From Roseovarius bejariae (GTDB lineage Bacteria; Pseudomonadota; Alphaproteobacteria; Rhodobacterales; Rhodobacteraceae): a stretch of 64,000 bases of DNA. Below the pieces are notes generated by a model, which was not told the origin of the DNA, searched no databases, and saw only the letters and a list, made by a program, of their open reading frames with translations. Shown piece by piece: positions 1-19,984 of this stretch. The stretch is from NCBI RefSeq assembly GCF_009669325.1, contig NZ_SZWE01000002.1, positions 1 through 64,000 on the forward strand, written 5' to 3'. The position numbers and the translations under genes are program-made. The first letter of the stretch is position 1, and every line of letters begins with the position of its first letter.

Positions 1-283
1 ATGCACTCCAGGTTGTTTTTCCAGTGGAGACGATCAGGAGACCATCAGGACGATCGTTCGTGTCACTTCCTTCCTTGAGAACAACCTCTGTGAATGCTTC
101 GATCGTGGTTCTCTTTCCGACCCTCATGCCGACGGTGCTCAAGACCGCCGTTGCCAAGGGCGGAATCTGGGGGAGAAGCGAGAGAAAAATGGATGCCATC
201 CTTTTCTCGCGACTGGTGTCGGCCAGGACCGGGAAGAGGCGCGCAGGTTCCCCTTGCTTCAAAAAATCAGGTAAATCAGTCAT
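1..283 (-). CDS. Partial nuclease-like protein (N-terminal 94 residues), cut by left edge
   Basis: An open frame on the minus strand begins with ATG at 281-283, has AGGAG 5-6 bases upstream (near 289-294), and runs off the left edge without a stop. The visible N-terminus begins MTDLPDFLKQGEPARLFPVL. Near the edge it carries RPDGLLIVSTGKTTWSA, which resembles the strand before the LVEAK strand of PD-(D/E)xK nuclease-like proteins; here D would be the first metal ligand. The second half of that motif lies outside the window. It sits on the cargo side of the Tn7-like module, so it may be transposon cargo. The family assignment is inference from a short stretch. Confidence 0.6.
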   Translation of the reverse strand, partial: MTDLPDFLKQGEPARLFPVLADTSREKRMASIFLSLLPQIPPLATAVLSTVGMRVGKRTTIEAFTEVVLKEGSDTNDRPDGLLIVSTGKTTWSA

Positions 284-426
284 TTTTATCTCCTAAAGGT
301 TGTTTTGACCGTAGATAGGCAAATGGCACTACGTCAATAAATTCACTGGAGGTGTCGACGGAAACAATTGCACGACAGCCACATCAGAGCCCGGAGAAAC
401 TTCAAAATTTCCGTCAAAAGATAGAC

Positions 427-876
<450 letters not shown>

Positions 877-899
877 TTATTATCGGTCTTTGAACAACC

Positions 900-1046
900 T
901 CAGACTAAGAAGAAACACGGTTGCCGCCAGACTCGGCCGCGCACTGCGCTACGCCGAAAGGCTTCGTTCGCGGCCTCTTTCACCAACCGTAGGGGCACTA
1001 CCTTCGCCAGCTCGGCACAATGCCCCCAATGCATTTTCGAATCCAT
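900..1046 (-). CDS. Small 48-residue reading frame of unknown function
   Basis: A minus-strand frame runs from ATG at 1044-1046 to TGA at 900-902. It includes AELAKVVPLRLVKEAANEAF and later GRVWRQPCFFLV. I have an unverified impression of having seen near-identical sequence scattered in Rhodobacteraceae genomes, which would suit a repeated element rather than a functional protein. There is no clear ribosome site. It lies upstream of the higB remnant, as if its insertion or an associated deletion removed the toxin gene. Confidence 0.3.
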   Translation of the reverse strand: MDSKMHWGHCAELAKVVPLRLVKEAANEAFRRSAVRGRVWRQPCFFLV

Positions 1047-1684
1047 TAAAATGCCTTCAACGTAAGCGCAGGGCTCCAAAAAGCTTTTTGAGGGCGCCCC
1101 GGCGCTGGTATTTTTGCAACACCTAAATCAGTGAATATCACGCCGTTTGACCCAAGATTTGGCGCTTGTCTCTGGGTGTGAGACCGCAGATGACGAGCGT
1201 CTGTAGCGCTTATCAAGAATATATACATAAATAACAGTAGGTTACCATTTTTCAGAGAGTCCACGTTGCCCATTTTTTCGCGCGACGAAGCGATTTTCAG
1301 AAATAAATTTCGGGCGAAAATCGCGGTTGTTTGGCAGGGAACAGTGCGTACCTTGAAGGCCACATGAGACAGTCGACAGCGAACTTTAGGAAAAAATTGA
1401 CCCTTGGATTTCGGGCTGTGTGCAAAGGGCTAATGTTCGATCTGTCGAGCCTGAAAGACTGGGAAGTGGGGCGTCCGACACGCGATTGAAGAGGACACGA
1501 AAAGTGGCTGTTTATATCTAAATCCAAATCCGCCCATGCGGATCGATAGATCCAAAAGGGTCGAGCGACCGCTAAGGGAAACCCAAGTGGTCGTTTTCAG
1601 AAACTCCCAAAAATAGACCGCCGCCTTCGGGCAGCGTCGGACTGAAGTCTGGCGGGTGGTCTTCCTACGTGAAAGGAAAACGAA
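1047..1684. other. AT-richer non-coding region upstream of tnsA with inverted repeats
   Basis: No frame here looks coding. A perfect 9-base inverted repeat GCGATTTTC (1290-1298) / GAAAATCGC (1316-1324) is visible, and ATCCGC-CCAT-GCGGAT lies near 1528-1543. TTTTCAGA-type words recur near 1248, 1294 and 1593. One TTTGGCAGG near 1330 resembles the right-end repeats but stands alone. The stretch presumably holds the promoter and control sites of the transposition operon. I could not find a transposon terminus matching the one at 7764. Confidence 0.4.
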
Positions 1685-2356
1685 ATGCCGAATTATTCGG
1701 AGGGTCGCGTATTGCCTGCGCAATCCCGTGGGGACCGCGATATCGCGAATGCGTCAACCGCGCACTGCACCGCTTTTACCGTTCTTGGTGAGCATTCAGG
1801 CACCCGCAGCCAAGCGGAGTCCTACACCGAGCTCTGTCACCAGAAAATCCAAGGCGCTCGGTCCGATGTTACCGACATCCAGGAGCAGGTGCTGTTCACC
1901 TTCGGCCGGCAAGACGAGAAACGGCACTTTTTCGACATGGTTGTCACGAAGGCTTCTGGAGAGCGCATTGCCTACACGGTCAAGCCTGAAGCACGCCTCA
2001 AATCTGGTCGCCATGTCGAAGACATGCGGACCATCGCCTGGTGGGTTCAAGAGAAGGGGTTTGCCAAGTCGGTGCGTCTCTTAACCGAGGCCGATATCGA
2101 TCGGGTCGTCCTTCATAACGCGAACATCAACTCGGCCTTGCGCGATACGGATCCGGAGGCTGAGCAGGCGGCACGCGCCGTGGCAAGTGGCCTGCGCGGT
2201 GCGGTGCCGCTGAACCAACTCACGCAACAGGTCGGCCTCGCGGCACGCGGCTATCGGGCCCTTTTGCGACTTGTTTCAGCAGGAGAGCTCGCACCCCTGC
2301 ATTCCGAAAAAGTCACCCATGAAACCCTTGTTGAATGGAAAGGAGAGCGTCAATGA
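1685..2356 (+). CDS. tnsA: TnsA-like transposon endonuclease
   Basis: This 223-residue protein has the size and position of TnsA, the PD-(D/E)xK nuclease that cuts the 5' ends of Tn7-like elements so that they move by cut-and-paste. Candidate catalytic residues are E67 (DIQEQ), D84 (HFFDMV) and K100 (YTVKPE), in the order and spacing seen in the TnsA core. The C-terminal third (about 130-215) is a helical region resembling the TnsA part that contacts TnsC. The start ATG at 1685 has GAAAGGAAAA just upstream. The gene ends in an ATGA overlap with tnsB, which implies coupled expression. The match is by motif and context; overall similarity to Tn7 TnsA is remote. Confidence 0.75.
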   Translation: MPNYSEGRVLPAQSRGDRDIANASTAHCTAFTVLGEHSGTRSQAESYTELCHQKIQGARSDVTDIQEQVLFTFGRQDEKRHFFDMVVTKASGERIAYTVKPEARLKSGRHVEDMRTIAWWVQEKGFAKSVRLLTEADIDRVVLHNANINSALRDTDPEAEQAARAVASGLRGAVPLNQLTQQVGLAARGYRALLRLVSAGELAPLHSEKVTHETLVEWKGERQ

Positions 2357-4713
2357 CCATTCTCCCCAACACGCAAGACCTTGGCGACGCCACGCCGGTG
2401 AAGAGCGGCTTTCGCTTGGATGTTCATGATCGGCTTCTCATTCATGGTAAGCCCTACCGTTTCCTCGGCATGTCTGGCGACAACGCCGAGCTGATACCCG
2501 CAAGCGGCGCCGGGATGACAGAGGTCTTCCCGATGGGCGCACTGGCCCGCTTGAGCGCGTCCGGCGACATCAAGCACGAGGTTGGCTACTACCTTCCGGA
2601 TGACCTCAAGCCGGCGTCGGCGGTCGCAGCCTTTGATTTCCAGCCATCAAACCTCGTCGGGAAAGCGAGGGTGCGCTTCGATGCAAAACTCGCCCAGATC
2701 AAGGCCATCGAAGATATGGAGGCTGAAGGTATTCTCAGGCCGAATAAGGAGAGCATCGAGGCAGCGCGTTCCGATATCGAAAAACGCGCCGAGGAGTACT
2801 TCAAAGCACAGGCGACTGAACGTGACCTCATTGCAAACGAAATTGCCAATGACGGATTGCCAGATCGCATACGCAAAGGCGTCCGTCAGAATCGCGGTGG
2901 CGGCATAACACGGAGAGTCGGCCTTTTCAGCGCCGATTACCTGCGAAAGCTTTTCGCTCGCTACAAGAACGAAGGCGTGGCGGCACTGGCCGACGATCTT
3001 TCGAAATCCGGGAACAGGACAAGCCCGTTTCGGCCCGAGGAACAGGCGCTGCTGACGGACATCGTCAACGGCAGCTACCTCACGCCAGAGCGGAAGTCGA
3101 TCAAGGCAACGGTTGCCGACGTTAAACGCGGGTTCCAGGCTGAAAACGAGCGTCGTGACCAAGAGGGGCTTTCGCCCCTTAGGGTACCGGGCCGTGATGC
3201 GGTGCGTCGGACGATCAAAAAACTCGACCGCTTGACGGTTCTTATCGCGCGTTTCGGGCGCGAAGAAGCGATGAAAAAGCTCCGGCCCGTAGGCAAGGGG
3301 CTCGAAGTCTCACGACCCGGCGAGCGCGTCGAGATGGATGAGTGGTGCATCGATCTGCTCTCCATCATTCGGTCTGCGAAACTCGAAACGGTCTTCGGCG
3401 AAGAGCATTTGAAGGCTCTTGGCCTTGATGGCGAAAAGGCCCGATGGTGGCTTGTCGCCGCCATAGATTGCCGCACCAGGATCTGCCTCGGAATGAAGCT
3501 GACCCGCAATCCATCGGGCAGCGCGGCGCGCGAATGCCTTCGTATGGTTGTCAGTGACAAGGGCCAATGGTCTGACAGTGTCAGAGCATGCTGTGCGTGG
3601 TCACACGCCGTTGTTCCGGAAGTCCTCGCCACCGATAACGGCCCAGGTTTCAAGTCGCGTATTTTCCAAAACGCCTGCCTTGATCTGCAGATGGTGTTTC
3701 TTCGAACGATCGGTGGAATTCCCGGCATGCGTGGGGCCATCGAGCGTCTGTTCCATACGGCCGCCCTCGGCCTGATGCCGCGCCTTGTCGGTCGCACCTT
3801 TTCGAACCCTCGCGAGCGTGGCGACTATCCGGCCGAGGATCGGGCGTGCCTTGATGCAGAGGATGTGGCCTTCGCCTTGGTACGCTGGATCGTCGACATT
3901 TACCACAATACGCCGCACGAGGGTTTGGGTGGGCGTACACCGCTCGAACAGTGGGACGCGGACATGGAAAGCGGCAACTACCCCCTTCGTGCTCTGCCGG
4001 ATGCCCGCTCGAAACGCCTCGCCTTCGGCAACCAGGTCAAGCGCACCGTGACGCGCGAGGGCATCACGGTGATGGGTATTCGGTACCACAGCGAAGACCT
4101 CGCCCTGTTCTATATGCAGCCAGGGTCCAAACAAGTGGATGTCAGCTGGGACCAGACGGATCTCGGCGCGATCGAGGTGTACCTCGATGGTGCGTGGCGT
4201 GAGGTTCCTGCGGTGCACGACCGGTTCCGGGGTTTGAACCTGCATGTCTGGCTAAGAGCACGCCGTGCCCTGCGCGCGAAATCAGCATCGCGACGGGCGT
4301 GGGAAGAAGAGGTCGTGTTCAAGGCCATCGATGACATCGAGGACCTTGCGACGGATAGATCCATAGCCTTCGGAATCGTGGACACCTCGATTTCAGAGAA
4401 GCGGCTGAAAGAGATTGAGTCAGAACTTTTCGGGACTTTCCGCATCACGGAGACGCAATCACTTCGCGACGATGGTCAAGACGCAGGCCGAGAAATCACC
4501 CCGCGCGAACCCGATCCCGACCGTCCGGTCAGGACCACGACCCCTCGCAAGGCCTCCGATGATGTGCCCGCGACGCCGGATGTCCAGAACCACCAAGATA
4601 CCGATCAGGGACCAGCGGCACCTGGTAGCAGCCAGGAGTTGCCTCCCGTCAAACCAGCCACCCGCCCGCGGACAGCATGGGTTCCGCGTAAACCCAAGGA
4701 GGACGACCAATGA
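2353..4713 (+). CDS. tnsB: TnsB/TniA-like DDE transposase
   Basis: This 786-residue protein is the transposase that binds the transposon ends and joins 3' ends to target DNA. A retroviral-integrase-type catalytic core is clear: D329 in VEMDEW, D428 in ATDNGPGF and E464 in GAIERLF, a DD(35)E arrangement. Residues around 170-310 form the helical DNA-binding region before the core, and a Mu-type beta-barrel follows (about 555-640). The proline- and charge-rich tail (about 690-786) is where TnsB proteins contact TnsC. I chose ATG 2353, which overlaps the tnsA stop as ATGA and has AAGGAGAG upstream, over the ATG at 2335. It overlaps tnsC by four bases. Confidence 0.9.
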   Translation: MTILPNTQDLGDATPVKSGFRLDVHDRLLIHGKPYRFLGMSGDNAELIPASGAGMTEVFPMGALARLSASGDIKHEVGYYLPDDLKPASAVAAFDFQPSNLVGKARVRFDAKLAQIKAIEDMEAEGILRPNKESIEAARSDIEKRAEEYFKAQATERDLIANEIANDGLPDRIRKGVRQNRGGGITRRVGLFSADYLRKLFARYKNEGVAALADDLSKSGNRTSPFRPEEQALLTDIVNGSYLTPERKSIKATVADVKRGFQAENERRDQEGLSPLRVPGRDAVRRTIKKLDRLTVLIARFGREEAMKKLRPVGKGLEVSRPGERVEMDEWCIDLLSIIRSAKLETVFGEEHLKALGLDGEKARWWLVAAIDCRTRICLGMKLTRNPSGSAARECLRMVVSDKGQWSDSVRACCAWSHAVVPEVLATDNGPGFKSRIFQNACLDLQMVFLRTIGGIPGMRGAIERLFHTAALGLMPRLVGRTFSNPRERGDYPAEDRACLDAEDVAFALVRWIVDIYHNTPHEGLGGRTPLEQWDADMESGNYPLRALPDARSKRLAFGNQVKRTVTREGITVMGIRYHSEDLALFYMQPGSKQVDVSWDQTDLGAIEVYLDGAWREVPAVHDRFRGLNLHVWLRARRALRAKSASRRAWEEEVVFKAIDDIEDLATDRSIAFGIVDTSISEKRLKEIESELFGTFRITETQSLRDDGQDAGREITPREPDPDRPVRTTTPRKASDDVPATPDVQNHQDTDQGPAAPGSSQELPPVKPATRPRTAWVPRKPKEDDQ

Positions 4714-5702
4714 ACATTCAAATGCCCAAGGGCAAACTGGTGCAGAGCCTGCGCGACATGCATGTGCCCAACGAGCGGGACGATGCGGTGGAAAAACACC
4801 TCAACCGGCTGCTGCAGGTCGATGATGAGGGTCGCCCGACTGCCGAGCCATGCCGATTTACCGCGGACAGGGAAACGCGCGGCATCGCCGTCATCGAAGC
4901 TGCTGGTGGCGGGAAAACCACGGCGATCCGAACAGTGCTGCAATCGACCGAGGCTTTGCGGATGAACCCGGAAACCGGCCTTCCGCGATATCTGGAGATC
5001 CAGATCCCCAGTCCTGCGACGCACAAGAGCGTTGGTCTTGCGATCCTGGAGGCAACCGGCATGTCCGGGGTCTCCTCGAATGCCAAGGCTTGGGAAATCT
5101 GGGGCGCCGTGCGGAAACGGTTGGGTCAAATGGGTATCAAGGTTCTGTGGTTGGACGAGGCCCAGGACCTCGTGATGGCCCAGTCGGCAAATGATACCGA
5201 GACGACCTTGAGGACGATCAAGACGCTCATGCAGGGCAAGAACGCTGTGATCCCAATTCTCAGCGGGACACGGAGGCTGGGCGAGATTACGAGTTTCGAT
5301 CCGCAGGTGTCGCGGCGCTTCACCAAGATCGCGCCGACAGACCTCGACCACAGCACAGACCAGGAGAACCTTTTCGGGATGATCGACGCCTATTGCGATG
5401 AGGCCGGTATCACAGCGCGGTTGCCTGAAGATTTGGCACTACGCCTGATGACGGGGAGCCGCTATCGGTTCGGACGGGTGATCGAGACCATCGTGAACGC
5501 GATCGAGTGCGCCATTTACGACGATGAAGCTTTCCTCACCGTCGATCACTTCGCCGAGGCCTGGGCTATGCAGGAAGGCTGTGAGCCTGGCTCCAATATC
5601 TTCCTGGCCCCGGATTGGATGTCGATCCCCCTGGATGCAGGGGCCGAGGAATACGAGAAGGCGCGCACCAAACGCCAGCAGAAGAAAATCGAGCGGGGTT
5701 GA
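4710..5702 (+). CDS. tnsC: TnsC/TniB-like AAA+ ATPase, transposition regulator
   Basis: This 330-residue AAA+ protein would assemble on target DNA and link the target selector (TniQ) to TnsA/TnsB. The P-loop reads EAAGGGKTTAI (K69, T70); it departs from the usual GxxxxGKT because the first glycine position is E63. Walker B is VLWLDEAQDL (D149, E150). A sensor-like LSGTRRLGE follows near 180, and an arginine-rich VSRRFTKI near 200. Its length fits TniB rather than the longer Tn7 TnsC. ATG at 4710 overlaps the tnsB stop. Confidence 0.9.
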   Translation: MNIQMPKGKLVQSLRDMHVPNERDDAVEKHLNRLLQVDDEGRPTAEPCRFTADRETRGIAVIEAAGGGKTTAIRTVLQSTEALRMNPETGLPRYLEIQIPSPATHKSVGLAILEATGMSGVSSNAKAWEIWGAVRKRLGQMGIKVLWLDEAQDLVMAQSANDTETTLRTIKTLMQGKNAVIPILSGTRRLGEITSFDPQVSRRFTKIAPTDLDHSTDQENLFGMIDAYCDEAGITARLPEDLALRLMTGSRYRFGRVIETIVNAIECAIYDDEAFLTVDHFAEAWAMQEGCEPGSNIFLAPDWMSIPLDAGAEEYEKARTKRQQKKIERG

Positions 5703-5705
5703 GCC

Positions 5706-7538
5706 ATGGTGATGCTGCCTGTCCTTCCACTGATCGAGGGGGAGAGCACCGTATCGTGGTGCTCTCGGCTCGGTCCGTTTCATGCCGGCTTGTCCGGCCC
5801 AGACTTCCTGAAGCTCATGCAGATCAGTCGCCAAAGCGTCGTCGACACCACTGATGACTGCATCGGACGGCTGGCTGACCTTACCGGGATCGCCGAGCCC
5901 CGCATACGGGCCTCCGGCGTGCAGCGTGTCGGTGAGGCGCGCTTCAAGCATCGTGACGAGGAATTCGGCATGCGGTTCGCGCTGCGCACCCATACGACCT
6001 TCTGCCCGGCTTGCTTGCTCGAGGATGCAGATCCCGCCGGGCCCAGCTCGGGGCAGCGGGTTGGCCGGATTGGCTGGATGTTCAGCCCAGTCAGAACATG
6101 CCCCCGGCACGGGATTGTTCTTCATCGGCGCCGCAACAGCGGGTTTCATGAGCAGTTCCAGGATATGACCCTCGTGGCGCCGGACGATGCCGTCCTGGAG
6201 AAGCTGGCGGCAGATGCGCCGTCAGCAAGCACCTCTGCCTTGCAGTCTTATGTCGAGCGGCGTTTCAATGGCGTGTCCGGTCCCGACTGGCTCGATACCC
6301 AGGACGTGGACCAGACGACTAAAGCCTGTGAGATGCTCGGGGCCTGCATCGTGTTCGGGGCGCATACAAATCTTGATACGCTTTCGCTCCATGATTGGTC
6401 GGAGGCCGGCAGCGCCGGGTACGAGGCGGCCCGTGATGGCGTGGACGGGGTGCGCAACGCACTTGAAGAGATTTCACGCGCGTCCTTTCGCCAGATTTCC
6501 AAGGGTGGCCCGCAAGCGGCCTTGGGTCGAATTTACCAGTGGCTGCAATTCAAGAAATCGAAGACGGACCCTGGATCGATCCGGGATGTCGTGCGGGAAT
6601 TTGTCCTGGACACGATGCCGGTTGACCCTGGCAGTACCTTATTTGGCACCCCTGTCGAGACGCGGCGCCGTCATTCGCTGGCCAGCCTGTCGCGATCGAC
6701 CGGAGTTCACCAGGCGACCTTGCGCCGGGCGCTGAAACTCACCGGTGTTCTTCCCGCTGATGTGGACGCCGACGAACGGTTCACCGTCGACGCGGGCCAA
6801 GGGGAAAGGTTGGCCGAACGCATTCACAATTCAATTCCGATCAGCAAGATCCCGGACTACCTGAACTGCAATCGGACCCAGGCGCAGATGCTGGTAAAGC
6901 GGGGTATCGTATCTCAGTTGGTGCCGAATCTCGGCCGCGGCGGTGGTGTCCTCGCCAAGGTTGCCGTCCAGGACCTCGATGAGTTTATCTCGCGCTTTCG
7001 GGCTGGTGGGACACCGGTTGGCCGGGCCAGCGATGGCATGAAGGATGTCATCACCGCGTCCGAGATCGTGCGGCGACCGGTGATGGACATCGTTCAGCTT
7101 GTTCTGGATCGCAAACTGACATCGATTGAGCTCCTGCCTGAGGACATTGGGTTCCTCTCGGTACTGGTCTCCCCGGACGAGGTCCGTTCCGTGATCTCGG
7201 AACTTGAAGGCGAGATCGGTTTGTCCGCGCATGATGTTGCCGCCCGTCTCGGAATTTTCACATCCGGCGTCACGCATCTTCGGACGAAGGTCGACAGTTC
7301 GGGTCGCCCGTTTCTGCCCTCACTTGAAACCGTGGCGTCGAGCGGCACCGTCCGTCATCGCTTCGCGGAAGAGGAGGTGAAGCGGTTCCAGGCGGACTAT
7401 GTCGCGTTATCGGATCTGGCCAAAGAGAGGGGCAAGTCCCCGAAGACGGTTGCGGTGGAGCTACGGAAACTTGACATAAAGCCGATTATGAGGCGGGAAC
7501 TTCTTAACGCTGCGATCTACAGGCGTGCCGATTTGTAG
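5706..7538 (+). CDS. tniQ: TniQ/TnsD family target-selection protein
   Basis: This 610-residue protein has an N-terminal TniQ domain (LPLIEGESTVSWCSRLG, about 8-160) containing a zinc finger of the form CPAC...CPRH (about 99-138). It is longer than minimal TniQ (about 300-400). The C-terminal 400 residues hold several helix-turn-helix-like segments, for example SLASLSRSTGVHQATLRRAL, SKIPDYLNCNRTQAQMLVKR and LSDLAKERGKSPKTVAVELR. That layout is like TnsD proteins, which read a fixed chromosomal site, and no CRISPR genes or array are present. The chromosomal target is not evident. The start is three bases after tnsC; ATG 5712 is an alternative. Confidence 0.85.
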   Translation: MVMLPVLPLIEGESTVSWCSRLGPFHAGLSGPDFLKLMQISRQSVVDTTDDCIGRLADLTGIAEPRIRASGVQRVGEARFKHRDEEFGMRFALRTHTTFCPACLLEDADPAGPSSGQRVGRIGWMFSPVRTCPRHGIVLHRRRNSGFHEQFQDMTLVAPDDAVLEKLAADAPSASTSALQSYVERRFNGVSGPDWLDTQDVDQTTKACEMLGACIVFGAHTNLDTLSLHDWSEAGSAGYEAARDGVDGVRNALEEISRASFRQISKGGPQAALGRIYQWLQFKKSKTDPGSIRDVVREFVLDTMPVDPGSTLFGTPVETRRRHSLASLSRSTGVHQATLRRALKLTGVLPADVDADERFTVDAGQGERLAERIHNSIPISKIPDYLNCNRTQAQMLVKRGIVSQLVPNLGRGGGVLAKVAVQDLDEFISRFRAGGTPVGRASDGMKDVITASEIVRRPVMDIVQLVLDRKLTSIELLPEDIGFLSVLVSPDEVRSVISELEGEIGLSAHDVAARLGIFTSGVTHLRTKVDSSGRPFLPSLETVASSGTVRHRFAEEEVKRFQADYVALSDLAKERGKSPKTVAVELRKLDIKPIMRRELLNAAIYRRADL

Positions 7539-7566
7539 ACCCAGTCCTCAAAAATTTTGCTGAATG

Positions 7567-7591
7567 AAGCCGCCCACACGGGCGGCTTTTT
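7567..7591 (+). terminator. Rho-independent terminator of the tns operon
   Basis: AAGCCGCCC (7567-7575), loop ACAC, GGGCGGCTT (7580-7588), then a run of T. It lies 29 bases after the tniQ stop. Confidence 0.9.
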
Positions 7592-7604
7592 GTTGCCTAA
7601 TGCC

Positions 7605-7764
7605 TGTTTGGCAAGACTATTTCTGAATTTTCGTGGCAAAACTTCACCGAACTGCTTGGCAAAGAAACCCGCCGATTTCGAGATCACGAAATTTCGGCCA
7701 TTGATTTCATTGGATTTTTCTTGTCTGTGGTTCTGCGTTTGGCATAACTATTGCTGCTCTGACA
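7605..7764 (-). repeat. Probable transposon end with four TnsB-type binding repeats
   Basis: Four direct copies of a TTGGCAWRACTATT-like motif have TGGCA at 7609, 7634, 7657 and 7740. The best two read TTTGGCAAGACTATT and TTTGGCATAACTATT. Read inward from 7764 on the minus strand, the terminus is TGTCAGAGCAGCAATAGTTA, so the element would end ...TGACA. Such arrays, two of them about 23-25 bases apart, are the usual TnsB landing sites. The bases after the terminus (GTGTT) would be one copy of the target duplication; the second copy was not found. Confidence 0.6.
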
Positions 7765-8113
7765 GTGTTGTCGCCACTACCAATTAGTGGCCACTGGCGG
7801 GGTCAAAAACGCCATTTTGCAAGCAAAAGAGGTCTATCGGGCTAAACGGCCCGTTTGACGCTTGTTTCGGTTAGAGTCGATGTTGCTGTGGTTCGACTCC
7901 TTGTAAAGCACATAGGTTCGTTCCACAGGCGCAAGAAACGTCTCAGACATGATTTTTGGGATTTCTCCAAAGCCGTATCCTTCGACGGGAAATGATTATT
8001 GTCTGTTGAAGAAGTTATTGGCGTCTATGTGTGTCGAGGATGCAAAGTGTGCCCTCAATTTCAGGTCTGGCAGACAAGGAACCTCCGCGATTCTGAAGAT
8101 AGTTGGGGCCACG

Positions 8114-8145
8114 ACAAAAAGCCGTGACCGGGGAGGTCGCGGCTT
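8114..8145 (-). terminator. Likely minus-strand terminator
   Basis: An 11-base stem (8119-8129 with 8135-8145, one mismatch) is followed on the minus strand by TTTTTGTCG (complement of 8110-8118). It would end a transcript coming from the right, yet no recognisable minus-strand gene precedes it. Confidence 0.5.
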
Positions 8146-8392
8146 GGACAGGGTAAGGTTTACGCCTTAGCGAAAGGCGGCCAGCAGGTCGCTGACGCGT
8201 GCGCCATACCATCTGACCGATGTGTCGACGCAATAGCCTCGCCTTGCGTTCTGAACCGTTCCGGGTTTGCCGGAGGCTGTTTGGGTTAGATTGTGCGTCA
8301 TATTCCCGCATACCCTCGCTTGTGAATGGGCGAGAGTTTCCCATAACATTCTGATTTATATATGCAATTTTTAAAATATGTGATGTAGTACC

Positions 8393-8454
8393 GACGCTTG
8401 CGGAGACGCGAGGATACGAGACGTTTCTGGTCAAAACAGACGCTTGCGTATACT
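8393..8454 (+). promoter_or_regulatory. Candidate control region of the secreted-protein operon
   Basis: GACGCTTGCG occurs twice (8393-8402 and 8439-8448), 46 bases apart, directly upstream of the operon. A TATACT box (8449-8454) abuts the second copy and would serve as a -10 element for a start about 40 bases before the first ATG. No good -35 match is visible, as expected for an activator-dependent promoter. This is speculative. Confidence 0.3.
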
Positions 8455-8495
8455 ATTCAGCAAGCGATTGATGTCGCGGGACAGGAGGCAGGGCC

Positions 8496-9056
8496 ATGCG
8501 TCCGATATTGATTATGCCACTGCTCGCATCCCTTTTTGCGACGACTTCACAGGCAGAAACCTGTGCGGATTTTCCGGCGACGGAATTGGTGGATCATATG
8601 CGGATCTGCGTCAGTTCGGTCCTGCCGCCGCAGGTGGGAAACAGCTATGGCCCTGCCAATCTGTTCGACGGCTCGGGCAATGCCTGGTGCGAGGGCGCAC
8701 CCGGCTTCGGCATAGGAGAGACCGTGACGCTGAGCCTGCAGGGGGCCGGCGCCTTCCGGCAAGTGATGATCAGCAACGGTTATGCCAAATCGGACAAGGC
8801 GTTCTTTGCCAACGGGCGTGTGCGCCTGGCGGAGATTTCGACAGACCTTGCCGCGCCGGTGCTGGTCGAATTGCCGGATACGGCCGCCCCGATCACCATA
8901 ACCCTGCCAGGCAACCAGCCCGACAACCATCGCGTGATCCGGTTCAGGATTGTCGATGTCTACCCAGGGTCGAAATACCGCGACACCTGTCTCAGTCTTT
9001 TCGCGGCGGATTTGGAGCATGAACGTGACTTGGAGTGGAAATCTCAGGGATATTAG
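8496..9056 (+). CDS. Secreted protein with NADase-type glycan-binding domain
   Basis: This 186-residue exported protein has a signal peptide of about 20 residues (ending TTSQA before ETCADF). The mature part resembles the discoidin-like NADase-type glycan-binding domain: YGPANLFDGSGNAWCEG (about 50-66), GETVTL, a GYAKSDKAFFANGRVRLAEI segment and IVDVYPGSKYRDTCLSLF near the end. Such domains bind carbohydrate ligands; no catalytic part is present. Cysteines 24, 38, 65 and near 167 may form disulfides. It is first in a five-gene operon of exported proteins, and its 3' end overlaps the next gene. Ligand and partner are unknown. Confidence 0.75.
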   Translation: MRPILIMPLLASLFATTSQAETCADFPATELVDHMRICVSSVLPPQVGNSYGPANLFDGSGNAWCEGAPGFGIGETVTLSLQGAGAFRQVMISNGYAKSDKAFFANGRVRLAEISTDLAAPVLVELPDTAAPITITLPGNQPDNHRVIRFRIVDVYPGSKYRDTCLSLFAADLEHERDLEWKSQGY

Positions 9057-9399
9057 CGCGATCACGGCGCTCTGTCTGGCGGGCTCGGTCTGGGCCGGTG
9101 CGGTTTGGGCTGAGGCGGATGGTCCGGATTATCTCCGAGTCGTCGATGTGGCTTCCAACGATGTGCTCAACATCCGCGCGGCCCCGACAGCGCGCGCCGT
9201 GAAAATCGGCACGATCCCGCATGATGGTGATGGCATTCTCAACCACGGCTGCATCAACCAGATGAGCTATGCACAATGGCAGGCGGCGAGCCCCGCTGAG
9301 CGCGAGAAGGCCCGCAAAAGGGTGTGGTGTGACATCAGTTATCGCGGCATACGGGGTTGGGTCGCAGGCTGGTTCCTGGCCGAAGGGAGTGCCCAATGA
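9019..9399 (+). CDS. Secreted SH3-domain protein
   Basis: This 126-residue protein has an N-terminal hydrophobic signal (about 15-35, AEADG after cleavage) and one bacterial SH3_3 domain (VLNIRAAPTARAVKIGTI ... GWVAGWFLAEG). A short insertion inside the SH3 holds a cysteine (GCINQM) and a second near VWCDISY, probably a disulfide. Bacterial SH3 domains of this class often bind peptidoglycan. I chose ATG 9019, which overlaps the upstream gene by 38 bases and has GGAG nearby; an in-frame ATG at 8950 would bury the signal peptide. It ends in an ATGA overlap with the next gene. Confidence 0.75.
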   Translation: MNVTWSGNLRDISAITALCLAGSVWAGAVWAEADGPDYLRVVDVASNDVLNIRAAPTARAVKIGTIPHDGDGILNHGCINQMSYAQWQAASPAEREKARKRVWCDISYRGIRGWVAGWFLAEGSAQ

Positions 9400-12095
9400 T
9401 CGCCCGGATCCTGATGTGGCTGGCCGTGCTTCTGCTGCCAGTCATGGCGGTTGCTGGAAACGGATATACCTTCAACGAGGAATTTCCACACAAAAAGCTG
9501 GAGGCTTTCGAGAAGGGCGTGCGGGACGTGAACCCCATATGCATGCCGAAACCCTACCCAATTGAAGCCGAGTTCTACCCACTGAGGGTCGGCAAGGCCG
9601 CGCTTGCCAATTGTGGCACCGAAGAGCAGGTGCGCAAATACAGCAAATATATCCTCAATCTGAAGGACAATCCGACCGTCACGGCCGCCATGATCTCCGA
9701 TCTGAAGGTCGACGCGGCGCAATGCGTGCTCAACAGCTTCATCGACGCCGACTCCACGATCAACGCCTATCAAAAGGAAGATTACAAGACGCTCGTGAAT
9801 GCGGGCATCAGCGTTGCCAATTGGTATAGCCTTCTCAAGAGCCTGGGCCAGCTGCGCGCGGCCGATGCGGATGTTTTCATGACGACGATGATGTCGGCCG
9901 GTGAGCGCAGTTTCGATCTCGAGGCGCTGTACCACTCGGATGTGGGCGGGCAGATATTGGATACGCTGCTGACCAAGCGATACAAACACTTTCTGGCGCT
10001 GGGCCATTATCGCGAGCGCTGCGACTATGGCGCGGCGTCAGTGGAGCTGAAAAACCTCCGCATGGCGACCGATGATGCCTGTGTTGAAGCTGGCCATGCC
10101 TATCGTCAGGCGGAACGCAACCTGCGGCATCACAGCTATACCTTTCGCGGACGCCTGAAAGAGTTCAACCGCAACCAGTTTCACGATGAATTCGACATTC
10201 TGACCAAGATTATGCGCAGCAAGATGAGGCTGTTGGAGCAGTTTGAAGACGACTATGCCGAGTTGGAACAGATCGAGCGCGACCTGCCCTCCGAGGCGAA
10301 AAGCTTTGCGGCGCGGCGCAGTGATTATCGCGCAGCCTTCGATGCGGCACAGAAAGCACTTCCGACCGCGGCCAGTTGTCGGGATCTCGATCCGATGACC
10401 ACGGCGCAGGCGCTTGCAAACGGGACCAAGCTTTCCTGCCGCCCCGCTTTCTATGGCGTGGGCGGGGATGCCCTGCCGCATGTCGATGCGCTTGTGGCGG
10501 CCTTGTCCCAAGAGGCACGTACGCGCTCCGCCGGCTATTGGACCCGGCTCGATCATATTCGTGGCCTACACAATGCCTGCAAGACCGGGGGGCGCGATCG
10601 TGCCATCGCCGCCCTGCGTGAGGAAATGCGCACCCATCCCGCGCTCGGATATACCAACGGGTCTTGTGGGGAAATCGCTCAGCCGCAGTTGCAGCAAGAG
10701 CTGGACCGAATGGCAAACAATCTCCCCGAACATTGCCAGATGACAGCAGTCCCGCGCGAGATCCTTCGCCTGCCCGCCACCGAGGCGGTACGGGCGCTCG
10801 AAGAGGCGCGGCTTTTCCTACTCGGCCCACCGACACGCATACCGCCGAAACCCGATGAACCGGAAGGCATCGTGGTGGACAGTGCCCCGGCGCCCGGGGA
10901 GCCGGTCCGGGTTTGGACCGGGGTCACCCTGACCGTGACCGGTGCACAGCCGAAGGCCGAGGCCGGGCCGGAACTGGTCACCGTGCCCCCGATCCTTGGC
11001 CTCACCGAAGCCAAGGCGCTCACTGCGTTGTCCGAGGCCGGGCTAAGCGGGGTCGTGGGCAAACGGATTCCCGCCAACCGGTTGGAGCTGAAACCCGGTA
11101 TTGTCCATACCGCCGTGCCGGGGCCGGGACGGCCCGCGGCCATGGGCGCGGCGATCTCATTGACCGTGGTCGGTCCGCGCCCGATGATCGAGGTGCCGAG
11201 CCTCGCCGGTGCCAAGACCGAAGCACAGGCGCAGGGCATCCTTGCCGAGGCGGGCTTTGTTCCCGGACCCGCAGCAGCCGGCAACCCCGCCCCCGAAGGC
11301 GAGAAGCCGGGGAGTTTCTATGATACGGACCCGCCCGGGCCCGGCCCGTATCCGATGTTCACCACGTTGCAGCCACTGGCCTTTGCCGCACCCGCGCCCC
11401 CGGCCGAACCCGAGATGCGTCCGGTGCCAGGGGTGAAGGGCATGGAACCGGGCAAGGCGAAGGAAATAATCCGCAAGGATGGGTTCTTTGAAGTTGGCAC
11501 GGTTTCGGCCGGTAAACCGGCGACAGGTGACGAGAAGCCCGGCACCGTGCAATACACCACCCCCGGGATCGGGCAGCCCGCCCCCAAAGGCACGACGGTC
11601 AATCTGTACGTCGCCGTGCCTGCCGTGGCGGTCGAGCCCGATGCCCCCGCCGCGCCGCCCGATCCGGCACCGCTTGCGGCCGGCGACGGTGATTGGAGGG
11701 GCCTGTGGGAATTGAGCGATTTCAGCACTGACAGCGCCTCGGCCCGGCAAAGCCTGTCGGACGGGGTGTTGCGGTTCCGCGTCGAGGAAGCAGACGGCAG
11801 ACCGATGTTCCGGCTTTACAGCAACCGCAATGGTGAGTGGAAGAAGTTCTTTGATTTCCCGGTCGAGATCGACCGTGTCGGTATATTACGTGCGGATCCG
11901 GGCTTCCTGCGCGAGATGGAGGCCGAACTTCAGGCCGATGCGGCCAAGGGCGAAGTCGGGCAATTGGCGCAGGTGATCTTCGGCGCGTTGAACGAGCTGG
12001 AAATGACCCGTAAGGGAGTCGCCTGCACGATCCGGATCTATGACGTGCGCGGCAGCCAGATGGTCACCCTCACAGCGCGCTGCCGGCGGTTGTGA
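9396..12095 (+). CDS. Large exported protein with four PASTA-like repeats
   Basis: This 899-residue protein starts at ATG 9396 (ATGA overlap) with a signal peptide ending VMAVAG. Residues about 25-440 form a helical, cysteine-containing domain I do not recognise. Four PASTA-like modules follow at about 450-515, 528-592, 598-660 and 675-742, each with a proline-rich GxVxxTxPxxGxP turn. PASTA domains usually bind peptidoglycan or muropeptides and sit on Ser/Thr kinases or penicillin-binding proteins. Here there is no kinase and no transmembrane anchor besides the signal. A C-terminal module (about 765-899; DWRGLWEL ... CTIRIYDVRG) resembles the next gene's product. Confidence 0.7.
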   Translation: MIARILMWLAVLLLPVMAVAGNGYTFNEEFPHKKLEAFEKGVRDVNPICMPKPYPIEAEFYPLRVGKAALANCGTEEQVRKYSKYILNLKDNPTVTAAMISDLKVDAAQCVLNSFIDADSTINAYQKEDYKTLVNAGISVANWYSLLKSLGQLRAADADVFMTTMMSAGERSFDLEALYHSDVGGQILDTLLTKRYKHFLALGHYRERCDYGAASVELKNLRMATDDACVEAGHAYRQAERNLRHHSYTFRGRLKEFNRNQFHDEFDILTKIMRSKMRLLEQFEDDYAELEQIERDLPSEAKSFAARRSDYRAAFDAAQKALPTAASCRDLDPMTTAQALANGTKLSCRPAFYGVGGDALPHVDALVAALSQEARTRSAGYWTRLDHIRGLHNACKTGGRDRAIAALREEMRTHPALGYTNGSCGEIAQPQLQQELDRMANNLPEHCQMTAVPREILRLPATEAVRALEEARLFLLGPPTRIPPKPDEPEGIVVDSAPAPGEPVRVWTGVTLTVTGAQPKAEAGPELVTVPPILGLTEAKALTALSEAGLSGVVGKRIPANRLELKPGIVHTAVPGPGRPAAMGAAISLTVVGPRPMIEVPSLAGAKTEAQAQGILAEAGFVPGPAAAGNPAPEGEKPGSFYDTDPPGPGPYPMFTTLQPLAFAAPAPPAEPEMRPVPGVKGMEPGKAKEIIRKDGFFEVGTVSAGKPATGDEKPGTVQYTTPGIGQPAPKGTTVNLYVAVPAVAVEPDAPAAPPDPAPLAAGDGDWRGLWELSDFSTDSASARQSLSDGVLRFRVEEADGRPMFRLYSNRNGEWKKFFDFPVEIDRVGILRADPGFLREMEAELQADAAKGEVGQLAQVIFGALNELEMTRKGVACTIRIYDVRGSQMVTLTARCRRL

Positions 12096-12652
12096 TGCGC
12101 TGGGCGGGGGTCATAGCCTCAATGATTGCCGCGCCACTTTCGGCCGGGGAACTGGTTTGCCCACCTATCAGCGGTACCCCACAGGGCTTTGGCTTTTTGG
12201 CCCCCGATCTTGAGGCGCGTTTTGCCGCGTCGTCGTCCTCGGAGGAGCCGGCTGCGGAGACACCGACCGACTGGATGGGAGCATGGCGCATTACCCCGCC
12301 GGAGGGCGGCCCGGCGCCGCTGAGCAGTCTCGAGGTTCAATCTGAATTCGGCACGCTCTGGCTACGCTGGGATCCCGATCTGAGCGACCCTTGCAGTGCC
12401 GATACCCAGATTCCGGTGACGGCCACCTCCACTCGGCTGAAGGGCGATCCGCAGGCCCTGACGGAGGCCCGTGTCTTGGGGTTTGTCCCGCCCCCGGATG
12501 ACGCCCCGGGCCTCATGTCTCCCGAGGCGCGCGCAGTGCTCCTGGGAAGCCTGACACTGAAGCGAAGTGGGGCGATGTGTTATCTGCGCTGGACCGGTCC
12601 GGATGGTCCCCGCGCACTTCAATTTCATTGCATTCCGGAAGCAGGAGAATGA
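12095..12652 (+). CDS. Small secreted protein, WxGxW module
   Basis: This 185-residue protein has a signal peptide (about 1-17, before GELVCPP) and no family I can name. After about 50 residues it reads DWMGAWRI, later LWLRWDP, and ends CYLRWTGPDGPRALQFHC. The same landmarks in the same order occur at the C-terminus of the upstream PASTA protein, so the two probably share a beta-rich domain. ATG 12095 overlaps the previous stop (GTGATG; GTG 12092 is also possible). It ends four bases after the ATG at 12649. Confidence 0.65.
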   Translation: MRWAGVIASMIAAPLSAGELVCPPISGTPQGFGFLAPDLEARFAASSSSEEPAAETPTDWMGAWRITPPEGGPAPLSSLEVQSEFGTLWLRWDPDLSDPCSADTQIPVTATSTRLKGDPQALTEARVLGFVPPPDDAPGLMSPEARAVLLGSLTLKRSGAMCYLRWTGPDGPRALQFHCIPEAGE

Positions 12653-12657
12653 TCGAG

Positions 12658-14583
12658 ATGTTGCGTCCCCTTATCCTGATGACCCTGTTGAGCCTGCCGA
12701 TGAGCGCTCAAGCCGAGATGATCGAAGGCAAGGTCGCGTTGGTGGCCGAGCGGGGCCGTGTCGAGATCACCTTGCCTGCCGGCGTTTCGGCCAATCCAGA
12801 CGATCCTGTGACCCTTTTGGCCGATATTCCGGGGCTGGGCCTGACGGCGATCAGCACCCTGTGGCGGGTGGAACGGATCGAGGGGCAGCGTCTCATCGCC
12901 GTGCCCGAAGCACCACCCACGGGAACCCCGCAGCCCGGCTATGTCGCCCGGATTGACAGCTCGGTGACACAGGCCGGACAGGCGGGTGACAGAGGGGAAC
13001 AGTCCGATGCGGCTGCTGCACAAAGCGGGGCAGAGGACTTGGCGATGCATCTGCCGGATATCCCGCTCCGACAGATCGACCCGTCACCTGCGGCCGAAAA
13101 TCTGTATCTCGCGGCGCAGAACCTGATGTCCGAGGGAGAATTCGCACAGGCCGCACCCTTGTTGCGCGACGCTGCGAGGCAGTATCACGGCCATGCGATG
13201 ACGGAACTCGGCGCGCTTTATGCGTTCGGTATGGGGGTGCCGCAGTTGCATGAGGTGGCGCTGGCCTGGCAAGAGCTGGCCGCACAATATGGGGAGCCGG
13301 ATGCCTATCTGCGTCTCGGGCTGATGCATCTGACTGGTCAGGGCGGTGCGGCGGATATTCCGATGGGCACGGAAATGCTGCACAAGGCCGCGGCCTATGG
13401 CAGTGCTCAGGGCATGTATCTTTTGGCCCTGCTTTATGAAGACGGAACCGGTGTGCCGGCCAGCGAGCATGAAATGGTTTCCTGGCTGCGTGAGGCGGCT
13501 GACTATGGGTACGGTCCGGCGCAATCGGTGGTCGGGCAGATTTATCTCGATGGAGATGCCGGTGTGTCGGCGGATCGTGCAAGAGCACGCGATTACCTGA
13601 CACGGGCGGCGGAGAATGGTCAGGTAGCGGCGATGGATACGCTGGCGGGGCTGCTCGAGTCCAGCAATCCGGAGCAGGCCCGGTACTGGCGCGATGCCGC
13701 GCATGCCGCGCCGGCCAATCACGAGAATGAGGCGCTCTGCGTGCGTGACTGGGAATGTTACGATGCGGTGGAGCCGGCAGCGCAGTTGCAACAACCGGCG
13801 CAACCAGTGGCCCCCGCTGCCGAGGCCATCGCCGGGCCTGCGCGACAAACTGACGAAGTGCAGGACTGTGACCGGCTGGCTGCCCATCCGTTTGATGCGG
13901 ATCGCCCGGATCCGGCGCTGGGTGTGGACTATGCTGCAATTGACGCCGCACGGGCGCTGGTGGCCTGCGAAGCCGCGATCGCCCGCTGGCCCGACAGCCG
14001 TCGGTTTCATGCCAATCTCGCAAGCGTGCTGCACAAGCTGGACCGGCCGGCAGAGGCTTTCGATAGCGCCATGATTGCCGCTGAGATGGGCAGCGCGCAG
14101 GGCATGGCCTTTGTCGCGACCATGTATAAGAGCGGGAGCGGCGTGCAGCCCGACCCCGCACGCGCCCTTTATTGGTTTGAACGCAGTGCGGATGCCGGCA
14201 ATGTCGCGGCGATGATGTTCGCCGCCTCGATGACGATCAATCCCGACAGCCAGCTATATGATCCGGTCCGCGCCGCAGGCTTCTATCGTGCCGCCTCAGA
14301 GGCCGGCCATGCGGATGGCACGGCCAACCTTGGCGTTCTTGTCAACAACGGCCAGGGCGTTCGCTATGATCCGGCGCGGGCCGCCACGTTGCTGCTCGAC
14401 GCTTTGGAGCGTGGGTCGCAAAAAGCGTATCAGGAGTTGATGGTCGAATACTCCGGTCTGTCACCCGATACTCGCAAATATGTACAGCGGTTGCTGCAAA
14501 CACGCGGTCTTTATTCGGGTGGGATCGATGGTGTATTCGGACCCGCCACCGTGCGTGCGTTGCGCGCGGTTCATCGGGATTGA
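12658..14583 (+). CDS. Exported SEL1-repeat protein with C-terminal peptidoglycan-binding domain
   Basis: This protein of about 641 residues has a signal peptide (LLSLPMSAQA). SEL1-like helical repeats appear in two blocks (about 179-336, e.g. AMTELGALYAFGMGV; and about 481-589, e.g. GTANLGVLVNNGQGV), separated by a cysteine-bearing linker. The last 38 residues (YVQRLLQTRGLYSGGIDGVF...) are a peptidoglycan-binding type 1 domain. SEL1 arrays act as protein-protein scaffolds. I prefer ATG 12658, with AGGAG ten bases upstream, over ATG 12649, which overlaps the previous stop. It closes the operon; no clear terminator was seen. Confidence 0.75.
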   Translation: MLRPLILMTLLSLPMSAQAEMIEGKVALVAERGRVEITLPAGVSANPDDPVTLLADIPGLGLTAISTLWRVERIEGQRLIAVPEAPPTGTPQPGYVARIDSSVTQAGQAGDRGEQSDAAAAQSGAEDLAMHLPDIPLRQIDPSPAAENLYLAAQNLMSEGEFAQAAPLLRDAARQYHGHAMTELGALYAFGMGVPQLHEVALAWQELAAQYGEPDAYLRLGLMHLTGQGGAADIPMGTEMLHKAAAYGSAQGMYLLALLYEDGTGVPASEHEMVSWLREAADYGYGPAQSVVGQIYLDGDAGVSADRARARDYLTRAAENGQVAAMDTLAGLLESSNPEQARYWRDAAHAAPANHENEALCVRDWECYDAVEPAAQLQQPAQPVAPAAEAIAGPARQTDEVQDCDRLAAHPFDADRPDPALGVDYAAIDAARALVACEAAIARWPDSRRFHANLASVLHKLDRPAEAFDSAMIAAEMGSAQGMAFVATMYKSGSGVQPDPARALYWFERSADAGNVAAMMFAASMTINPDSQLYDPVRAAGFYRAASEAGHADGTANLGVLVNNGQGVRYDPARAATLLLDALERGSQKAYQELMVEYSGLSPDTRKYVQRLLQTRGLYSGGIDGVFGPATVRALRAVHRD

Positions 14584-15116
14584 GCTCATGTTGTTCGTTT
14601 CCGGTTCGATCTGGCCGAGCAGGAGTGGGCAAAGCCCCGAAAATCGGACACGGACGTAAGGTGCGATACGTAATCATTTGGTCTTCGATGAGTAGGAGAT
14701 CAGTGATGTCGAAACCCAAGAGCCATTCACCTGAGTAAAGACAAAAGCGAGCGCGCATGGGGTGATGGATTGGGCGAGCTCAGGCGCCAGGCCAACCATG
14801 CACGGCAGTCAGCTTGTTGCCCTCAAGCAAGAGAATGTCGTCTTTGCCTGAGAGATAGGCAGCAACATCAAAATAGGCGTGTTCGTATCCTTGTTGTTAG
14901 GCTGCGCGTGGTTTGCATAAGTACACATGGATCAACCTCAAGCATAGCCCGCGACGGTTTCAAAATATCAAAATGCCGCTCATGCCCATTTTAAAAAGGC
15001 CGATATTGAAATGATGCACAACCTTGGCGATTAAGGTTTGCACAGGAAAAGTTTGCAATAAAGCCCCTTTAGACGTATCCGAACGGCAAGGGCATACGGT
15101 TGGTCGAGGAACTGGT
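14584..15116. other. Intergenic region with no intact gene
   Basis: No frame here is convincing. A decayed minus-strand reading frame is described separately. The part from about 14930 to 15010 is AT-richer (TTTCAAAATATCAAAATG, TTTTAAAAAGG) and may hold the promoter of the secretion genes. Confidence 0.4.
14780..14893 (-). pseudogene. Possible relic of an RTX-type secreted protein
   Basis: The minus strand between an upstream TAA and the TGA at 14780-14782 reads ...YEHAYFDVAAYLSGKDDI and LLLEGNKLTAVHG. The D-I-L-L-L-E-G-x-x-L pattern is like the closing repeats of RTX/hemolysin-type proteins, substrates of type I secretion. Only about 37 codons are open and there is no start. The link to the neighbouring type I secretion genes is suggestive only. 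Confidence 0.25.
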
Positions 15117-18160: not shown

Positions 18161-18239
18161 ACGTAAACGCGAAATAGTTGGTACGGAGGGGCCAAGCCAC
18201 AATTTGTTTTTTTGGCACGCAAAGGTTGCTCGACCGTGT

Positions 18240-19151: not shown

Positions 19152-19163
19152 GATACCTGATAT

Positions 19164-19178
19164 ATAGAAAGTATCTAT
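19164..19178. promoter_or_regulatory. OxyR-type half-site in the divergent promoter
   Basis: ATAG AAAGTAT CTAT has the ATAG-N7-CTAT spacing of OxyR elements and lies 13 bases from the regulator start and 83 bases from the peroxiredoxin start. A full four-element OxyR site was not found. Confidence 0.55.
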
Positions 19179-19261
19179 TACTTCAATTCAAAACATTCAT
19201 TTCAATGATGAAGCGCGAATGCGTACCTTTGGGTCAGATAGATAACCAAGGAGACCACGCT

Positions 19262-19906: not shown

Positions 19907-19920
19907 TCGCTGTGTCGATG

Positions 19921-19943: not shown

Positions 19944-19984
19944 TGTTCCCCCGTCCACTCATTCGCAAACGAGAGAGAAAAGAC

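What the first reader, a model, noticed from the sequence alone, without database searches (positions are those of the whole stretch)
1685..7764. Tn7-like element without CRISPR, carrying a four-gene TnsA-TnsB-TnsC-TniQ module
The sequence shows a DD(35)E transposase, AAA+ ATPase, TnsA-like nuclease and a 610-residue TniQ/TnsD protein in one coupled operon. TnsA implies cut-and-paste movement, unlike the related Tn5053 family. No Cas gene or array is seen, so targeting should be protein-guided.
Basis: partly seen in the sequence, partly recalled or inferred. Interest (0 to 1): 0.7.

Follow-up and report, generated by a model that had tools for sequence, protein, structure and literature searches.

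The report
Tn7-like transposon homing to nrdJ
A roughly 50 kb jumping element in a marine bacterium carries its own four-protein transposition machine and sits just behind a conserved DNA-building gene (nrdJ), a landing site I did not find described for this transposon family, and its machinery genes are preceded by a conserved folded RNA leader.

Summary
The element does not begin at 1685. Its other end lies on another contig of the same genome, 22 bp after the stop codon of nrdJ (class II, B12-dependent ribonucleotide reductase), with the same 5 bp (GTGTT) outside both ends: about 50.2 kb, with nitrate-assimilation and restriction genes as cargo. Comparison of 50 nrdJ flanks shows this spot to be a homing site for several Tn7-like lineages in Rhodobacteraceae, often stacked in tandem; here the next element's end begins at 7769. 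TnsA has the Tn7 TnsA fold and an invariant E-D-K triad; TniQ has a TniQ core plus tandem helix-turn-helix domains, fitting protein-guided targeting. Beyond the finding: a 63-nt leader before tnsA folds into a three-way junction plus a hairpin over the ribosome site, with covariation and no Rfam match; all 14 distinct strong model matches in two overlapping genome samples (394 and 244) precede a tnsA. A known kind of transposon; the homing site and the leader RNA appear new.

The parts
1616..1678 (+). Leader RNA of the tns operon: three-way junction (P1-P3) plus hairpin P4 over the ribosome-binding AGGA; the tnsA start codon follows at 1685
   Evidence: Alignments and pair counts; model R1 match 83.3 bits at 1615-1687 (this leader is in the model's alignment); no Rfam match up to E 1 in 1-20000
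1685..2356 (+). tnsA, endonuclease, 223 aa; E49, D84, T98 and K100 invariant in 43 sequences
2335..4713 (+). tnsB, DDE transposase, 792 aa; D335, D434, E470
4710..5702 (+). tnsC, AAA+ ATPase of TniB family, 330 aa
5706..7538 (+). tniQ/tnsD target selector, 610 aa: TniQ core (about 1-315) plus tandem helix-turn-helix domains (about 319-610)
7569..7592 (+). Hairpin followed by a T run: likely terminator of the tns operon
   Evidence: read from the sequence
7606..7669 (+). Three TnsB-site-like repeats (7606-7625, 7633-7649, 7655-7669; core TTGGCAA/GTGGCAA)
   Evidence: the second and third set out by eye
7737..7764 (+). Terminal TnsB-site-like repeat and element end (...TGACA); the inverted partner begins TGTC at C1:2846154 of the same genome
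7765..7769 (.). 5-bp target duplication GTGTT (same 5 bp before the other end, C1:2846149-2846153)
7769..7860 (+). nrdJ-side end of an older, different Tn7-like element (type B) abutting this one; shares the last T of GTGTT
427..801 (-). Cargo: helix-turn-helix protein, 124 aa (HTH_3; best PADLOC match PD-Lambda-2_B, 83 bits)
1..282 (-). Cargo: N-terminal piece of a gene whose other part is at the end of contig C1; a duplicate at C1:3-917 indicates that about 106 bp lie between the contigs

Best explanation
This is a cut-and-paste Tn7-like transposon of about 50.2 kb that homes to the 3' flank of nrdJ. TnsB binds arrays of sites at both ends (terminal TGTC/GACA) and joins the 3' ends; TnsA cuts the 5' ends; TnsC links them to TniQ, whose chain of helix-turn-helix domains recognises the conserved 3' end of nrdJ and places the element about 15-30 bp after the stop codon, making a 5-bp duplication and leaving the gene intact. 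Different lineages use the same spot, so newer elements land between nrdJ and older ones and build tandem stacks. The tns operon sits at the far (tniQ) end, with the cargo between the nrdJ-side end and tnsA. A structured leader that can cover the ribosome site probably controls tnsA translation. Shown: genes, TnsA and TniQ folds as models, both ends, the equal 5 bp, linkage to nrdJ, tandem ends, RNA covariation. Inferred: binding of TniQ to nrdJ, binding of TnsB, cut-and-paste, activity, and the leader's regulatory role.
For: nrdJ of the same genome ends at C1:2846131; 22 bp later, after GTGTT, comes TGTCGTTACGGGCGTAGTTATGCCAAA; the other end is ...TTTGGCATAACTATTGCTGCTCTGACA followed by GTGTT. 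The two 35-nt tips agree at 19 positions, reached by 1 of 10,000 shuffles. A scan of the C1 part and of window 1-7900 finds the exact core AGTTATGCCAAA only at these two tips, each with TGT 15 nt before it; the five other places with up to 2 changes lack a TGT at that distance. The contig break lies inside one gene with a duplicate elsewhere. Of the pairs of ends I could read, 4 of 7 have equal 5-mers: window GTGTT, L029 GTTAT, L037 TGTTG and L031 AGTAT, the last with both ends on one contig. In the genus sample of 60 genomes, 15 tnsB hits (whole or partial) outside this genome reach E<1e-50, in 13 genomes; 8 are on the contig of nrdJ, all 8 within 51 kb downstream of it, 7 on its strand. Of 50 nrdJ flanks, partly chosen for carrying elements, 26 fall into four groups, and in 22 of those 26 the likeness starts 14-25 bp after the stop codon; of the 30 flanks fetched in the genus (the best matches of 58), 27 could be read and 10, this genome included, are in the groups. 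In 8 of 21 elements the DNA past the tniQ end matches nrdJ flanks, against 3 of 420 shuffled queries. nrdJ is named by NCBIfam TIGR02504, 593 bits, cut-off 400. Folds.
Against: The duplication is set by the homing site, so equal 5-mers do not prove that both ends belong to one element, and stacks are common here. The element is split over two contigs with about 106 unread bp. Three of 7 pairs of ends have unequal 5-mers: L028 (equal only if its tip is moved by 2 nt), L038 and L078; stacking could explain these. Of the 15 tnsB hits, 7 are on contigs without nrdJ. Of 17 loci of named genomes looked up (of 29 found), 6 share the contig of nrdJ, 9 do not and 2 were not checked. 24 of 50 flanks join no group. 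A more distant tniQ relative, L048, is followed by a gene that looks like zwf (by eye). L030 has tnsAB facing nrdJ; G050's copy is on the other strand. No transposition was observed.
Confidence: 0.86

Rival explanations
1. The roughly 50 kb segment is a composite: the nrdJ-side end belongs to a newer element and the tniQ-side end to an older one, joined by deletion or recombination between stacked elements.
For: Stacking is frequent: 8 of 21 elements abut another element's end; the 5-mer is set by the site; the contig break lies in a duplicated gene.
Against: Both ends are of one type and share AGTTATGCCAAA at the same distance from the tip; no further tip of this type lies in the C1 part or window 1-7900 (about 106 bp unread). 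All eight other genomes of the type A group carry a tnsB 55-83% identical to this one; but G356, whose tnsB is 57% identical, has an ungrouped end.
Confidence: 0.1
2. The element is no longer mobile: a relic in which the tns operon persists.
For: The neighbouring type B element left an end but no TniQ of its own: the genome has only two TniQ genes, here and on C1; several relatives show tnsAB without tnsC behind it (L026, L030, L033).
Against: All four frames are intact, catalytic residues are kept, both ends and the duplication are preserved, and seven clusters of TniQ at 89-91% identity occur elsewhere.
Confidence: 0.25
3. The conserved leader is not an RNA but shared DNA, such as a transposase or regulator binding region, spread by recombination between elements.
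For: The second element on C1 shares 687 bp with other elements, some 580 bp of it upstream of the leader, so recombination has occurred; single leaders of L037 and L029 fold no better than shuffles (z -0.2); the number of further pair types does not exceed shuffles (190 of 500 and 73 of 500 reach it); the structure was drawn from these same sequences.
Against: Changes on both sides of 12 of 20 pairs keep pairing across 23 distinct leaders; 0 of 500 shuffles reach the covariation score, and slid structures give two fifths of it or less (alignment fitted to the model); the alignment not fitted to the structure gives the same picture with 8 of 20 pairs.
Confidence: 0.12

Closest known systems
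Tn7 (TnsABC+TnsD, glmS site)
   Same: TnsA fold, DDE TnsB, AAA+ TnsC, TniQ-domain selector with DNA-binding tail, insertion just after the stop codon of a conserved gene, 5-bp duplication, TGT/ACA ends (Tn7 traits partly recalled)
   Different: Site is nrdJ, not glmS; cargo lies between the gene-side end and tnsA, and tniQ abuts the far end (Tn7 arrangement recalled); no TnsE match, though that control was silent; single TniQ
Tn7-like elements with a tRNA-targeting TnsD (with or without CRISPR)
   Same: Protein-guided homing by a TniQ with a multi-HTH tail, as described in PMC10293859 and PMC11406308 (passages)
   Different: A protein-coding gene as site; no CRISPR-like array found by script
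Tn5053/Tn402 family
   Same: DDE transposase, TniB-type ATPase and TniQ
   Different: TnsA present here; homing to a chromosomal gene end instead of plasmid resolution sites (site from the table in PMC11406308; lack of TnsA recalled)
Second Tn7-like element of the same genome (C1, after tRNA-Arg)
   Same: TnsA, TnsB, TnsC and TniQ parts, and the same leader RNA before tnsA
   Different: Other site (tRNA-Arg TCT), other TnsA, TnsB only 27% identical, tniQ at the opposite end, DISARM-like cargo; its far end was not mapped

Membership tests
Tn7-like transposon | TnsA-type endonuclease | tested here: met
   Fold match to 1f1z/1t0f, E 1.2e-7; profile match E 3e-4 starting at D84 opposite residue 114 (1f1z); invariant E49, D84, K100
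Tn7-like transposon | TnsB DDE transposase with Mu-type C-terminal domain | tested here: met
   Mu-transpos_C over cut-off, rve under it; TnsB of Tn6677 matched, E 1e-20; DD(35)E
Tn7-like transposon | TnsC AAA+ regulator | tested here: met
   TniB and AAA_22 over their cut-offs; Walker B VLWLDE, strict Walker A pattern not found; no solved TnsC matched by sequence
Tn7-like transposon | TniQ-domain target selector | tested here: met
Tn7-like transposon | TGT/ACA-type ends with TnsB-site arrays and 5-bp duplication | tested here: met
   TnsB binding itself not tested
Tn7-like transposon | Homing to one site beside a conserved gene | tested here: met
   nrdJ linkage and flank comparison; recognition by TniQ not tested
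Tn7 proper | Insertion after glmS | tested here: not met
   Insertion after nrdJ
Tn7 proper | TnsE second selector | tested here: inconclusive
   No PF18623 match in the genome, but no control genome rang either
CRISPR-associated transposon | CRISPR array in the element | tested here: not met
   Script for exact 20-nt repeats, three or more copies spaced 45-90 bp: none in window or C1 part; degenerate or two-copy arrays not excluded
CRISPR-associated transposon | Cas genes in the element | not tested
   No systematic Cas search of all cargo ORFs; of seven ORFs scanned with PADLOC, one helicase-like ORF has a weak Cas3 match, 18.7 bits
Tn5053/Tn402 family | No TnsA | tested here: not met
   TnsA present

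The most novel reading that the evidence does not exclude
The 5' leader of tnsA is a new class of regulatory RNA, a three-way junction coupled to a hairpin that hides the ribosome site, which gates translation of the transposase in at least two Tn7-like lineages with very different TnsA, responding to a signal such as a ligand, the element's own protein, or entry into a new cell; it would be a riboregulator of Tn7-like transposition, in elements that home to a nucleotide-synthesis gene.
Probability: 0.4. Interest if true: 0.72.

Novelty: new variant of a known kind. Interest (0 to 1): 0.6.

Why it matters
The chromosomal homing sites listed for Tn7-like elements are few (glmS, parE, yhiN, comM, tRNA genes; PMC11406308 passages). 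nrdJ would be a new safe site next to a conserved gene, used by several lineages in Rhodobacteraceae, and offers natural, protein-guided integration systems with large cargo. The stacks show how islands can grow behind nrdJ. The leader RNA gives a directly testable handle on how transposase production may be restrained in these elements.

Tried and rejected
Rejected: (1) That window 7776-7856 is host attachment DNA; I first took it so, but it is the end of another element type that lies directly after nrdJ in 13 of 50 genomes. (2) That the element is 6 kb and begins near 1685: a scan of window 1-7900 finds no second tip of this type there. (3) A sigma-54-like promoter reading of the 7737 repeat, considered by eye and dropped because relatives do not keep the spacing. 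(4) The ARAGORN tRNA-Arg at 14522-14613 as homing site: no Rfam match up to E 1 in 1-20000, and it overlaps the end of an ORF. (5) The 81 bp shared by 14635-14715 and L038 as a site: it is away from the element and looks, by eye, like an insertion-sequence end. (6) Far end of the type B neighbour by a typed consensus pattern: 0 matches. (7) A short L038 element next to nrdJ: wrong, the two contigs differ in length (27,527 and 60,948). (8) L032 with nrdJ: not verified to be on one contig, so not counted.

Other results. The type B end and the leader gave no blastn match in plasmid records. In the plasmid tblastn with TnsB, 8 of 4104 matching records have one place covering at least 80% of the query; not pursued. 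Weak R1 matches: 35.6 bits in G066 lies before a tnsA fragment near a contig end; 33.8 and 31.7 bits in G306 have no tnsA and were taken as chance. The G066 match is one of the 24 in the alignment.
Full report

The genome. The window is the first 64 kb of contig C2 (573 kb) of a three-contig genome.

The two ends. The tniQ side ends ...TTTGGCATAACTATTGCTGCTCTGACA at 7764, after three further TnsB-site-like repeats. The other end is on contig C1: nrdJ ends at 2846131, then 22 bp ending in GTGTT, then TGTCGTTACGGGCGTAGTTATGCCAAA from 2846154. GTGTT also follows 7764. The tips agree at 19 of 35 positions, reached by 1 of 10,000 shuffles. In the C1 part and window 1-7900 the exact core AGTTATGCCAAA occurs only at these two tips, each with TGT 15 nt before it; five other places with up to 2 changes have no TGT at that distance. 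C1 stops 42,336 bp after the tip, inside a gene whose start is in the first 282 bp of the window; a duplicate of that gene at the start of C1 places about 106 bp between the contigs. The element is thus about 42,336 + 106 + 7,764 = 50.2 kb, if it is one element. The gene before it is class II ribonucleotide reductase, TIGR02504 at 593 bits. Among seven elements with both ends readable, the flanking 5-mers are equal in four (window GTGTT, L029 GTTAT, L031 AGTAT, L037 TGTTG; in L031 both ends are on one contig) and unequal in three (L028, L038, L078; L028 would agree if its tip were moved by 2 nt).

The homing site. In the genus sample of 60 genomes, tnsB hits at E<1e-50 outside this genome number 15, whole or partial, in 13 genomes. 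Eight are on the contig that carries nrdJ, and all eight are within 51 kb downstream of it: G028, G045, G052, G033, G012, G057 and G055 on the same strand, G050 on the other. The other seven are on contigs without nrdJ. Of 17 loci of named genomes that I looked up (of the 29 found), contig lengths place six on the contig of nrdJ: L028, L031, L033, L035 and L049 lie 13 to 30 kb downstream on its strand, and L030 (tnsAB only) faces it; nine are on other contigs; L032 and L041 were not checked. Flanks of nrdJ from 50 genomes fall into groups of 13, 9, 2 and 2 plus 24 singletons; in 22 of the 26 grouped flanks the likeness starts 14-25 bp after the stop codon, in the other four earlier. About half of the 50 were chosen because they carry elements. 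The group of 9 has this element's end type. Of the 30 flanks fetched in the genus, which are the best NrdJ matches among 58, 27 could be read and 10, this genome included, are in the groups; the nearest relative by the C-terminal 210 residues of NrdJ (G046, 95%) shows no grouped end.

Stacks. I first took window 7776-7856 for host DNA, since it lies directly after nrdJ in other genera. It is the end of another element type: behind it lies a divergent tns operon in G281, G290 and G291, and in G001 at least a tnsA with the leader (only 1.5 kb seen). In 8 of 21 elements the DNA past the tniQ end matches nrdJ flanks of the set of 50; for seven of them in other genomes, for L038 only in its own; L028's match is weak (39 bp, E 1e-4). 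Shuffled queries match in 3 of 420. So elements of different types pile up behind nrdJ, the newest next to the gene. Here the type B neighbour seems to be a relic, because only two TniQ genes exist in the genome, one in this element and one on C1.

Layout and cargo. Unlike Tn7 as I recall it, the cargo lies between the gene-side end and tnsA, and tniQ abuts the far end. The C1 part holds NirB (895 bits), a nitrate-type ABC transporter ATPase (TIGR01184, 584 bits) and siroheme synthase CysG (505 bits), all over their cut-offs, and a molybdopterin oxidoreductase like formate dehydrogenase and assimilatory nitrate reductase but under all cut-offs; nitrate assimilation is the likely role. Near the contig end are a type IIG restriction enzyme-methyltransferase and a helicase-like gene. 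No CRISPR-like array was found by script; Cas genes were not searched for systematically; TnsE was not found, but the control was silent.

The leader RNA. In this genome the DNA before tnsA is 82% identical over 179 bp to that before the tnsA of the C1 element, whose TnsB is only 27% identical. Sixteen leaders (15 distinct) aligned without regard to structure support a three-way junction plus a hairpin over the ribosome site: 94.7% of cells paired, 27 cells changed on both sides, 0 of 500 shuffles reaching the covariation score; the count of further pair types is not above shuffles. The structure came from RNAalifold on these sequences, with the hairpin P4 added by me. With 23 distinct leaders, 12 of 20 pairs have changes on both sides (alignment fitted to the model, one weak match included). 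P4 is the weakest, 79% paired. Single leaders fold better than shuffles in the window (z -2.4) but not in L037 or L029 (z -0.2). The model matched 9 of 394 family genomes: eight matches of 73.8 bits or more, all before a tnsA; three weaker ones are told under Tried and rejected. In the order sample it matched 6 of 244 genomes with nine matches of 69 bits or more, all before a tnsA, the one in G028 contig 4 before a truncated TnsA-like frame recognised by eye. Together these are 14 distinct places; six (G000 twice, G028 C2, G281, G290, G291) were in the model's alignment, and G541's leader reads like that of L037, which was. No Rfam family matched. A second tnsA of the C1 type with the leader is in G056. 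A role in restraining tnsA translation is the simplest reading; it is inferred.

Literature. Searches of the held library: Tn7-like + TnsD + attachment site + ribonucleotide reductase, 0 papers; nrdJ + transposon + Tn7, 1, on Pseudomonas mucA, listing only; Tn7 + ribonucleotide reductase + genomic island + insertion, 1, on the Pseudomonas Cpx system, listing only; Tn7-like + Rhodobacter + TnsD, 1, on Salmonella mobile elements, listing only; nrdJ + integration site + genomic island, 0; Tn7-like + leader + riboswitch + transposase, 2, by their titles not about this, listing only. In PMC10293859 the main text has no word starting with nrd, reductase or ribonucleo; it, PMC8649781 and PMC11406308 were seen in passages only. 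Subscription papers and supplements were not seen, so nrdJ may be listed in a table I could not read.

Verdict. A real, well-delimited Tn7-like element of a known kind, with a homing site and a leader RNA that appear new.

Noticed in passing
G000 contig C1 about 1206949-1238944 (L020:10950-13089, L021, L022:1-2945): A second Tn7-like element in the same genome starts right after tRNA-Arg(TCT), with tniQ beside the tRNA, DISARM-like genes (DrmA, DrmB, a DrmMII-like methylase and a DrmD/DpdE-like helicase) as cargo, and tnsABC further on with the same leader RNA. Its far end was not mapped.
   Followed up: partly
L026, L030, L033: tnsA-tnsB without a recognisable tnsC or tniQ behind them, relics or another arrangement; in L030 they face nrdJ.
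   Followed up: no
L037 9920-13797: About 4 kb of other genes sit between tnsB and tnsC of a relative in Phaeobacter.
   Followed up: no
window 14522-14613: ARAGORN reports a tRNA-Arg spanning 92 nt at the end of an ORF; Rfam shows nothing there up to E 1, so it is likely spurious.
   Followed up: yes
C1 start (L087:1-920): The duplicated gene at the contig breaks carries an internal repeat and an ambiguous residue, which looks like an assembly fault.
   Followed up: partly
C1:2863000-2882999 (L085): A likely nitrate-assimilation gene cluster (nirB, molybdopterin reductase, ABC transporter, cysG) appears to ride on the transposon.
   Followed up: partly
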